From positions 124,001 to 188,000 of the forward strand of contig MKUP01000026.1 in assembly GCA_001898625.1 (NCBI GenBank): a stretch of DNA of 64,000 nucleotides, in the 5' to 3' direction. The notes beneath the pieces were generated by a model. It made no database searches, had not been told where the DNA came from, and saw only the letters and a list, made by a program, of their open reading frames with translations. Origin of the DNA: Burkholderiales bacterium 67-32. GTDB taxonomy: Bacteria; Pseudomonadota; Gammaproteobacteria; Burkholderiales; Burkholderiaceae_B. Positions within the stretch are counted from its first letter, which is position 1. Each line of letters starts with the position of its first letter. The translations under genes were made by a program, and so were the position numbers. This document shows, piece after piece, positions 27,618 to 50,105 of the stretch.

Positions 27618-28499
27618 ATGAAACGCATCGTGCTATTTCTGGCGACCAACGTCGCGGTCATGCTGGTCCTGACGGCGACGCTGAGTCTGCTCGGCGTCAA
27701 CCGTTTTCTGACCGCGAACGGCCTGGACATCCAGGCGCTGGCCATCTTCTCGCTCGTCGTCGGTTTCACCGGTTCCATCATCTCGCTCCTGATGAGCAAG
27801 CCGATGGCCAAGTGGAGCACCGGCGCCCGGGTCATCGACCCCAACGCGCCCAACGGCGCCGAGGAGCAATGGCTGGTCGACACCGTGCACCAACTGGCCG
27901 ACCGCGCCGGCATCGGCCGCCCCGAGGTCGCCATCTACGAGGGCGAGCCCAACGCGTTCGCCACCGGCGCCTTCAAGAACGACGCGCTGGTCGCGGTGTC
28001 TACCGGTCTGCTGCGGGGCATGACCGAGGAAGAAGTCAGTGCCGTCCTGGGCCACGAAGTGGCGCACATCGCCAATGGCGACATGATCACGCTGACCCTG
28101 ATCCAGGGCGTGGTCAACACCTTCGTGGTATTCATGGCGCGCGTCGTCGGCTACGTGGTCGATCGGATGGTGCTCAAGAACGAACGTGGTGGCGGCATCG
28201 GCTACTTCGCCACCGTCATCGTCTGTGAACTGGTGTTCGGCATCCTGGCCTCCGTCATCGTCGCCTGGTTCTCGCGCCAGCGCGAATACCGCGCGGACGC
28301 CGGCTCGGCCTACCTGCTGGGCTCGCGCGAACCGATGATCCGCGCCCTGGCCCGCCTGGGCGGCATGGAACCGGGCGACCTGCCCAAGAGCTTCGAGGCC
28401 TCCGGCATCGCCGGCGGCGGCAAGGGCTTCGGCGCGCTGTTCGCGTCCCACCCCCCCATCGAGCAGCGCATCCGCGCCCTGATGAACGCAAAAGGGTAG
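27618..28499 (+). CDS. htpX: HtpX membrane zinc metalloprotease
   Basis: This 293-residue inner-membrane protease degrades misfolded membrane proteins. Two N-terminal helices ([40 protein letters not shown]) precede the zinc motif HEVAH at residues 146-150 and a further pair of helices. The third ligand Glu lies in the [12 protein letters not shown] segment. The ATG at 27618 gives the canonical MKRIVLF start. The heat-shock type promoter fits its role. Confidence 0.95.
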
Positions 28500-28509
28500 A
28501 GGGGGTATA

Positions 28510-28589
28510 GCCCCCCCCTACGCCCTGCGGGCGCCCCCCAGGGGGCGATGCGGGTGGACCGGCGGAGCCGGATCCACCGCATCCTGGGG
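28510..28589 (+). repeat. Dispersed structured element, copy 1 (after htpX)
   Basis: The segment begins 11 bases after the htpX stop codon. It contains a C run, TACG, a short GC hairpin, the hairpin GCGCCCCCCAGGGGGC (28531-28546), then a long hairpin at 28547-28583 with apical loop GGA. It aligns along its whole length with the reverse complement of 49213-49292. Substitutions in the long hairpin occur as complementary pairs. Confidence 0.75.
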
Positions 28590-28642
28590 TACCAAGCGGC
28601 TGGCGGGGGCTGGGGGTTTGGCTGGTCGCTGGTTGGAATGAG

Positions 28643-28678
28643 AAAACGGCTTCGCTTTTTTGAGCGAAGCCGTTTTTC
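28643..28678. terminator. Bidirectional intrinsic terminator between htpX and the BON gene
   Basis: Fourteen-base arms (28643-28656 and 28663-28676) pair perfectly around TTTTTG. A-T pairs at the base give a U tract on both strands. It serves the convergent htpX (+) and BON lipoprotein (-) genes. Confidence 0.87.

Positions 28679-47040: not shown

Positions 47041-47042
<2 letters not shown>
47001..47042. terminator. Hairpin spanning both convergent stop codons
   Basis: AGCGGCC at 47001 is complementary to GGCCGCT ending at 47042. C and G runs between them extend the stem around TTGCC. The stop codons of the FAH gene (+) and hppA (-) lie in the two feet. There is no T run, so the mechanism is uncertain. 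Confidence 0.5.
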
Positions 47043-49116
<2,074 letters not shown>

Positions 49117-49212: not shown

Positions 49213-49292
49213 CCCAGGAAACCGCGGATCTGGCTCCGCCAGTCCGCCAGTTTCGCCCCCTGGGGGGCGCGCGTAAGCGCGTACGGGGGGCT
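49213..49292 (-). repeat. Dispersed structured element, copy 2 (after adk)
   Basis: This is the reverse-strand copy of the element at 28510-28589, starting immediately after the adk stop codon. In order on the minus strand it contains a C run, TACGCGC, the GCGCCCCCCAGGGGGC hairpin and a long hairpin (49254-49218) with GGA apical loop. Several stem pairs differ from copy 1 but stay complementary. Confidence 0.75.

Positions 49293-50105
<813 letters not shown>

What the first reader, a model, noticed from the sequence alone, without database searches (positions are those of the whole stretch)
28510..28589. Dispersed intergenic element with compensatory base changes (copy after htpX)
This 80-base segment and the reverse strand of 49213-49292 align end to end: C run, TACGC, GCGCCCCCCAGGGGGC, long hairpin, then CCTGGG. 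In the long hairpin at least four positions differ as pairs. The apical arm CCGGC/GCCGG becomes CTGGC/GCCAG, GTGGA/TCCAC becomes GCGGA/TCCGC, and the outer GATGCG/CGCATC becomes GAAAC/GTTTC. The GGA loop and a bulged A are unchanged. Paired change with fixed loop is what selection on structure produces. I cannot name a described family for it.
Basis: partly seen in the sequence, partly recalled or inferred. Interest (0 to 1): 0.75.

Follow-up and report, generated by a model that had tools for sequence, protein, structure and literature searches.

The report
Three-hairpin RNA repeat after stop codons
A short DNA repeat, scattered through the genomes of some Burkholderiales bacteria, encodes a three-hairpin structure that usually sits just behind the stop codon of a gene and may shape how the end of the messenger RNA is protected and translated.

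Summary
The two segments belong to a dispersed family in this Pigmentiphaga-group genome: 50 copies in 1.58 Mb examined, at least 150 genome-wide. The 75-nt core has a C-run, three hairpins and a CTGG tail.

Covariation holds within the genome (11 of 25 pairs changed on both sides) and across genera (18 of 25; 0 of 500 shuffles). The covariance model finds it in 72 of 268 family genomes and in 8 genomes of a second family of the order. Rfam has no match.

Position is the most striking feature. In 34 of 50 copies the 5' end lies at a sense stop codon (8% expected); where measured, helix 1 starts a median 11 nt after it. In other genomes 49 of 69 copies follow a stop by 2-12 nt.

This genome has no RAYT transposase. 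In a 95%-identical relative all 16 mapped own sites carry the family, sometimes with another hairpin type, but 5 of the relative's 20 mapped sites lack it here.

Best reading: a REP-like element, mobile in origin, acting in RNA as a structural barrier behind the terminating ribosome. It behaves like a REP but fails the tag and transposase tests. The mechanism is inferred, not shown.

The parts
27618..28499 (+). M48 peptidase gene (htpX by recall), ending in TAG at 28497-28499
   Evidence: Pfam PF01435 E 2.9e-38; sequence
28511..28518 (+). copy 1: C-run, first C 11 nt after the stop codon (helix 1 starts 21 nt after it, longer than the family median of 11)
   Evidence: sequence; unpaired in the model, but its first bases pair with the GGGG tail in the single-sequence fold
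28514..28587 (+). copy 1: 75-position covariance-model core
   Evidence: cmsearch 94.4 bits
28521..28533 (+). copy 1 helix 1, CGCCC-TGC-GGGCG
   Evidence: covarying pairs
28534..28545 (+). copy 1 helix 2, C-run/G-run hairpin
   Evidence: pairs mostly invariant
28547..28583 (+). copy 1 helix 3 (type A), loop 28564-28566, bulged A 28572
28646..28677 (+). intrinsic-terminator-like hairpin with T-run, downstream of copy 1
   Evidence: read from the sequence
49293..49946 (-). adenylate kinase gene, ending in TAA at 49295-49293
   Evidence: Pfam PF00406 E 4.1e-57
49214..49288 (-). copy 2: 75-position covariance-model core; helix 1 starts 11 nt after the stop
   Evidence: cmsearch 97.9 bits
49268..49281 (-). 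copy 2 helix 1, CGCGC-TTAC-GCGCG
49256..49267 (-). copy 2 helix 2
   Evidence: the single-sequence fold prefers the 5' C-run as partner of the G-run here
49218..49254 (-). copy 2 helix 3 (type B), loop 49235-49237, bulged A 49229
47041..49116 (-). H+ pyrophosphatase gene downstream of copy 2
   Evidence: Pfam PF03030 E 9.4e-268

Best explanation
This is a dispersed, REP-like element that is probably transcribed as the first part of the 3' UTR of the gene upstream. It folds into three hairpins that typically begin about 11 nt after the stop codon, roughly where the leading edge of a terminating ribosome would lie. I propose that it works in the RNA, as a structural barrier flush with the ribosome. 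It would limit 3'-5' exonuclease decay into the coding region, or ribosome movement and readthrough past the stop, and so tune output of the upstream gene. At the DNA level the copies are gained and lost between close relatives, and copies at shared sites exchange hairpin cassettes, probably by recombination. Shown here: the family, its conserved fold, its sense orientation, its placement at stop codons, swapped types at shared sites, presence/absence differences. Inferred: transcription, the barrier role and the recombination mechanism.
For: Fold: 11 of 25 pairs changed on both sides within the genome, 12 of 25 in a first set from other genomes, 18 of 25 in the wider set; 0 of 500 shuffles for that measure each time. 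Placement: 34 of 50 copies have the 5' end from -15 to +20 nt of a sense stop, against 8.0% of random intergenic points, binomial p 6e-26; only 3 of 50 have the 3' end within that range of a converging gene's stop. The stop-to-helix-1 distance has a median of 11 nt, 21 of 30 at 10-13. In 69 copies from other genomes, 49 follow a stop of a long ORF by 2-12 nt, against 343 of 12,057 control points. RNA strand: G-U cells outnumber A-C cells 42 to 7 in A4 (9 against 5 pairs) and 16 to 3 in A2. 3' UTR: 19 of 34 stop-adjacent copies are followed within 250 nt by a terminator-like hairpin; 77 of 256 other genes have one within 330 nt of the stop. Swapped types at shared sites.
Against: No expression data were available, so transcription is inferred. 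Covariation also arises from DNA palindromes. The wobble counts are cells, not independent events. Sixteen of 50 copies are not at a called sense stop, and two of them lie 9 and 12 nt before a called start codon in reverse. In window copy 1 helix 1 starts 21 nt after the stop, outside the usual range. Single-sequence folds pair the C-run in both window copies. Five sites of a close relative lack the element here, and G001 of the same genus has no hit, so no single copy looks essential. Gene ends come from a home-made caller, the second of two.
Confidence: 0.48

Rival explanations
1. Selfish mobile DNA: a non-autonomous palindromic element whose hairpins are recognised as single-stranded DNA by a recombinase or transposase. 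Stop-codon placement reflects target preference, junctions that bring a stop, and removal of insertions that harm genes.
For: Many near-identical dispersed copies. Five of 20 mapped sites of relative G008 have no copy in this genome; at one the stop is TAG with the element and TGA without, at another the C-terminus and stop differ. Copy number within shared sites differs at sites 1, 11, 14 and 16. Four composite inverted pairs 90-92 bp apart around a palindromic spacer, and truncated copies joined to full ones. Tandem copies 124 bp apart in another genus. Patchy presence among species. TAG stops enriched, 19 of 34 against 339 of 1478 other genes.
Against: No Y1/RAYT transposase in this genome; in the genus one partial match (profile positions 91-121 of 121) in 1 of 11 genomes. 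At least one of the five differences looks like loss here, since a TAG and a C-run remain (site 12). All 16 mapped own sites are shared, 14 in full. Sense orientation and G-U excess are not expected of DNA-only selection. Other transposase families were not searched.
Confidence: 0.33
2. A transcription terminator, intrinsic or Rho-dependent (C-run as loading site, hairpins as the trimmed 3' end).
For: It lies directly behind coding sequences in sense orientation and starts with a C-run of 6-8 nt in the window copies.
Against: 0 of 50 copies have TTTT within 12 nt 3' of the element, and 19 of 34 have a separate terminator-like hairpin further on. The C-run is short and is paired in the single-sequence folds of both window copies.
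Confidence: 0.15
3. A conformational switch read by the ribosome: the 5' C-run can replace the second C-run as partner of the G-run, and a ribosome on the stop codon would cover it.
For: The minimum-energy fold of copy 2 uses this pairing.
Against: Over 58 sequences of two genomes the G-run pairs with the second C-run with mean probability 0.73 and with the first with 0.14. By my reading of the sequences, homologs L304 and L327 keep or extend helix 2.
Confidence: 0.05

Closest known systems
REP/BIME/REPIN elements with RAYT transposases (Di Nocera and others, PMC3733652; passages and section 15 read)
   Same: High copy number, intergenic, palindromic, close to the 3' ends of genes, often next to a TAG stop, sometimes in inverted pairs.
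   Different: 75-nt core with three hairpins instead of one 20-40 bp palindrome; no conserved GTAG or CGTC terminus (GTAG within 12 nt upstream in 12 of 50 copies); no RAYT in this genome.
Bor repeats and family Bor-1 of Bordetella (PMC1590033 passages and section 10; PMC2267715 passages and section 14)
   Same: Related host group, intergenic stem-loop repeats near genes; Bor-1 model lengths of 93 and 117 bp are near those of the core plus its 3' extension.
   Different: Models R1 and R2 find 0 matches in 10 of 15 genomes of the Bordetella hinzii genus and 1-9 in the other five, whereas Bor-1 has 128 and 196 matches in B. pertussis and B. bronchiseptica. The 15 are unnamed apart from those reached through named loci, so the two species were not identified. 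The Bor letters are in a figure that is not held.
BRE, Beta-proteobacterial repeat element (PMC3110155; abstract, passages, section 14)
   Same: About 90 bp, GC-rich, mostly intergenic, reported from Bordetella and Comamonadaceae, sometimes in tandem; one copy lies in a transcribed region.
   Different: Table 2 gives 1-29 copies per genome. B. pertussis and B. avium carry 8 each, but the four genomes of the B. hinzii genus of 3.7-4.1 Mb have 0, 0, 0 and 1 match to R1 and R2 (identities only guessed from size).
E. coli REPs within about 15 nt of stop codons that affect translation (Liang, Rudd, Deutscher 2015; not held, content recalled, citation seen)
   Same: The same geometry: a stable hairpin just behind the stop codon.
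   Different: Different sequence, architecture and host; no functional test here.

Membership tests
GTAG/CGTC REP elements | Terminal GTAG or CGTC tetranucleotide | tested here: not met
   GTAG within 12 nt 5' of the core in 12 of 50 copies; only 3 of 16 copies away from called stops have TAG there (read); stops in other genomes are TGA 21, TAG 19, TAA 9. CGTC was not counted separately
GTAG/CGTC REP elements | RAYT (Y1_Tnp) gene in the genome (for GTAG REPs) | tested here: not met
   PF01797: 0 in this genome (99% complete), one partial match in 11 genus genomes
GTAG/CGTC REP elements | High copy number, extragenic, near 3' ends | tested here: met
   at least 150 copies; 34 of 50 at sense stops
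GTAG/CGTC REP elements | Single imperfect palindrome of 20-40 bp | tested here: not met
   three helices over 75 positions; helices 1 and 3 covary strongly, helix 2 is mostly invariant
Bor-1 | More than 100 matches in B. pertussis/B. bronchiseptica | tested here: inconclusive
   R1, R2: at most 9 matches in any of 15 genomes of the B. hinzii genus; which genome is which species is not told
Bor-1 | Consensus sequence | not testable with these tools
   figure and supplement not held
BRE | About 90-bp repeat in classical Bordetella and Comamonadaceae | tested here: inconclusive
   present in a second family of the order but absent from 10 of 15 genomes of the B. hinzii genus; BRE letters not held
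Intrinsic terminator | Hairpin directly followed by a T-run | tested here: not met
   0 of 50 copies
Any Rfam 15 family | Covariance-model match over the element | tested here: not met
   no hit over the element in the window at gathering scores, nor in 5 and 10 loci at relaxed E-values

The most novel reading that the evidence does not exclude
A previously unnamed RNA element, shared by at least two families of one bacterial order, placed to abut the ribosome at translation termination. Helix 1 typically begins where the ribosome's leading edge should be when the stop codon is in the A site, so the element would act on termination, recycling or stalled-ribosome rescue at over a hundred genes at once, while its DNA copies are kept alike by cassette exchange.
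Probability: 0.25. Interest if true: 0.82.

Novelty: new variant of a known kind. Interest (0 to 1): 0.6.

Why it matters
REPs and similar repeats have long been argued over: selfish DNA or RNA regulators? This family has an unusually sharp position relative to the stop codon, a fold supported by covariation across genera, and close relatives that have or lack it at the same gene end. That makes the question testable, because orthologous gene ends can be compared with and without the element. The covariance model could also seed an Rfam entry.

Tried and rejected
First gene caller: no clear orientation signal (up-same 21, up-opposite 27, none 2 of 50). It missed htpX as the gene before copy 1 and called shadow ORFs, so I replaced it with an iterated caller seeded on codon-position GC, which calls htpX. 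Own-genome placement counts rest on that second caller. The count in other genomes needs no caller.

TAG as a fixed part of the element: rejected as a general rule. At one site (G008 site 5) the stop is TAG with the element and TGA without it, so the junction may sometimes bring the stop.

The reverse mapping found five sites filled in G008 and without a copy here. I therefore lowered the best explanation from 0.50 to 0.48 and raised the mobile-DNA rival from 0.30 to 0.33.

Bor-1 and BRE: tested only indirectly. 220 kb of B. hinzii had no copy.

Conformational switch: the forced-pair energies were mis-registered for one conformer and are not used; pair probabilities favour helix 2.

Ortholog-against-paralog scores mixed both genomes; redone with own copies only.

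Literature: searches showed no paper that describes this family, as far as the listings and the passages I read tell. That holds only for that library and those terms.

One Pfam query used a wrong frame (second protein, no hit) and was repeated correctly.

Full report
WHAT IS THERE. Copy 1 lies on + at 28514-28587 behind the TAG stop of an M48 peptidase gene (htpX by recall); its C-run starts 11 nt and its helix 1 starts 21 nt after the stop. Copy 2 lies on - at 49214-49288, behind the TAA stop of adenylate kinase and before an H+ pyrophosphatase gene; its helix 1 starts 11 nt after the stop. Each has a C-run, (C/G)TA, a small GC hairpin (helix 1), a C-run/G-run hairpin (helix 2), a long hairpin with a bulged A (helix 3) and a CTGG tail. 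Both fold better than most shuffles (z -2.55 and -2.36; 2 and 3 of 200 shuffles as good), which is modest because the shuffles are GC-rich too. In these single folds the C-run is not free: copy 1 pairs it with the GGGG tail, copy 2 with the G-run. A search of the window for the short core alone is not informative (8 matches with up to 3 mismatches, 7.55 expected).

THE FAMILY. The genome (G000, 6,663,876 bases, 34 contigs) gave 44 DNA matches, with 40 of 214 candidates scored, and 56 strict pattern rows (53 distinct places) against 0 for the reversed pattern. In stretches totalling 1,581,300 bases (C33, C26 and the first 460 kb of C10) I found 50 copies by nhmmer and 50 by cmsearch. Genome-wide, 150 of 15,791 first-look candidates were scored and all 150 match at E <= 8.1e-9; scaling the 50 copies suggests about 210. 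The closest named genome by the peptidase protein is Pigmentiphaga kullae K24 (97%); that the 11 same-genus genomes are Pigmentiphaga is inference.

COVARIATION. On 48 distinct copies of this genome 97.1% of cells pair; 11 of 25 pairs have changes on both sides (109 cells), against shuffled means of 5.9 and 34.3, 0 of 500 shuffles as high; sliding the partners drops pairing to 30-54%. On 30 distinct rows from other genomes, some of the same genus: 12 pairs, 60 cells. On 67 distinct rows from several genera: 98.1% paired, 18 pairs, 168 cells, 35 further pair types, 0 of 500. Against this: the number of further pair types was reached by 40 of 500 shuffles and 172 of 500. The alignments were fitted to the model and rows are related, so the counts lean towards the structure. 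Helix 2 is nearly invariant within the genome and carries little evidence there. The variety of helix-1 sequences (CGCGC/GCGCG, CGCCC/GGGCG, CCCGC/GCGGG, GAAGCGC/GCGCTTC) makes chance an unlikely account. G-U cells exceed A-C cells 42 to 7 (9 against 5 pairs) and 16 to 3 (8 against 2 pairs), which points to RNA of the strand given here.

POSITION. With the second gene caller (1512 genes, stops TGA 980, TAG 358, TAA 174), 34 of 50 copies have their 5' end between -15 and +20 nt of a sense stop, against 8.0% of random intergenic points (binomial p 6e-26); three of these genes are called as ending inside the element. Only 3 of 50 have the other end within that range of a converging gene's stop. 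The stop-to-helix-1 distance is 8-23 nt, median 11, with 21 of 30 at 10-13; one further copy could not be measured. By recall, a ribosome with the stop codon in the A site covers about 10 nt beyond it. TAG is enriched (19 of 34 against 339 of 1478 other genes, p 4e-5). In other genomes 49 of 69 copies follow a stop of an ORF of at least 100 codons by 2-12 nt, against 343 of 12,057 control points, with stops TGA 21, TAG 19, TAA 9; some of the 69 are orthologous or tandem copies, so they are not independent. Of the 16 own copies away from a called sense stop, two lie 9 and 12 nt before a called start codon in reverse.

TRANSCRIPTION CONTEXT. None of 50 copies has TTTT within 12 nt after it; 19 of 34 stop-adjacent copies have a terminator-like hairpin within 250 nt 3', while 77 of 256 other genes with at least 100 nt of space have one within 330 nt of the stop (a simple home-made scan, no test of significance). 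So many copies appear to sit in the 3' UTR, before the terminator, as copy 1 does by its sequence.

HISTORY. A 400-kb stretch of a relative (G008) aligns to contig C26 at about 95% identity. Own sites to G008: of 17 sites in C26, one at the contig end could not be mapped; the 16 others carry the family at the same place in G008, 14 in full, one as a mosaic (site 5) and one truncated (site 8, the htpX site). At sites 6 and 10 the hairpin type differs (GCACTGGCGGA against ATGCGGGTGGA), and at two composite sites (4 and 7) the two arms have exchanged types; copy number or arrangement differs at sites 1, 11, 14 and 16. For sites 6 and 10, 20 and 18 of 42 own paralogs are closer to the G008 copy than its ortholog is; for the other five single-copy sites 1-6 of 42 are. 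This fits gene conversion or replacement at shared sites. G008 sites to C26: of 22 sites, 20 could be mapped; 15 have a copy here and 5 do not. Of these five, one keeps a TAG and a C-run here and looks like loss (site 12); one has TGA here and TAG with the element in G008 (site 5); one has a different C-terminus and stop (site 16); one has the same TAG in both (site 19); one composite is missing between TATAG and TGGTACAAT (site 11). So copies are gained and lost between close relatives. Four composite sites have two inverted copies 90-92 bp apart around a palindromic spacer. PF01797 (RAYT) is absent from this genome; the genus has one partial match in 1 of 11 genomes. At the htpX site, relatives G005 and G006 show no element.

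DISTRIBUTION. R1 matches 72 of 268 family genomes, 7 of 43 genera. Named genomes (10 of 20 with a match): P. kullae 150 (the cap), Achromobacter dolens 16, A. xylosoxidans 12, A. denitrificans 29, A. aloeverae 52, Bordetella petrii BT1 37, B. petrii MY10 14, Bordetella sp. BOR01 25, Bordetella sp. LUAb4 9, B. ansorpii 5; B. hinzii, B. trematum, B. genomosp. 5, 7 and 12 and five other genomes 0. In an order-wide sample 13 of 399 genomes match: 4 of the same family, 8 of one other family (f49, perhaps Comamonadaceae, a guess) and 1 of a third with a single hit. Six fetched loci of f49 (L322-L327) show the same architecture, five of them 2-11 nt behind a stop codon. In a class-wide sample 2 of 369 match, both of the same order. 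Large samples used stricter filters and few scored candidates per genome, so absences are not proof.

HOW IT WORKS AND WHAT IT RESEMBLES. The anatomy (sense orientation, a C-run under the presumed ribosome footprint, first stem near its edge, three stable stems, then often a terminator) fits a post-stop RNA barrier. E. coli REPs in a similar place are reported to affect translation (Liang 2015, recalled; citation seen). It works like a REP but is not filed as one: no conserved terminal tag, no RAYT, and a larger fold. Bor-1 (PMC2267715) and BRE (PMC3110155) come from neighbouring hosts; models R1 and R2 find at most 9 copies in any of 15 genomes of the B. hinzii genus, but the species there are mostly unnamed and the Bor-1 and BRE letters could not be compared.

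Noticed in passing
C26:311687-311760 of G000 (L106:11687-11760, -): A copy lies reversed 12 nt before a called start codon that looks like motA (recalled N-terminus); its G-run sits where a Shine-Dalgarno sequence would be. C10:455492 is similar (9 nt); C10:162133 has an ATG nearer than the called start.
   Followed up: partly
L325:1368-1430 (+): A match to Rfam RF02278 (Betaproteobacteria toxic small RNA) lies about 70 nt from a reversed copy of the element in another family of the order.
   Followed up: no
G008 stretches orthologous to C26 sites 5 and 10: A different GC-rich repeat-like sequence (at site 10 two copies of CGGGCCGCCCCAAGGCAAAAAAGCGCCC...) stands beside or inside the element.
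   Followed up: no
L265:1377-1953: Tandem array of the element with a 124-bp period in a second genus of the family.
   Followed up: no
contig C33 of G000, 2,057-276,130: No copy over 274 kb, then eight copies in about 88 kb; the family is clumped.
   Followed up: no
3' flank of copies, e.g. window 28588-28625: Several copies share a longer 3' extension (GGTACTACCGGGCTGGCGGGGG-like) that may belong to a larger element.
   Followed up: partly
G001 (same genus): No copy by R1, and only 2 matches to the htpX-region query, one of them the gene itself, although the ten other genus members have 3 or more R1 matches.
   Followed up: no
L309-L319 (B. hinzii): Overlapping 14-mers such as ACTGCCGGCTCACT each occur nine times in 220 kb, so some other repeat is present.
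   Followed up: no
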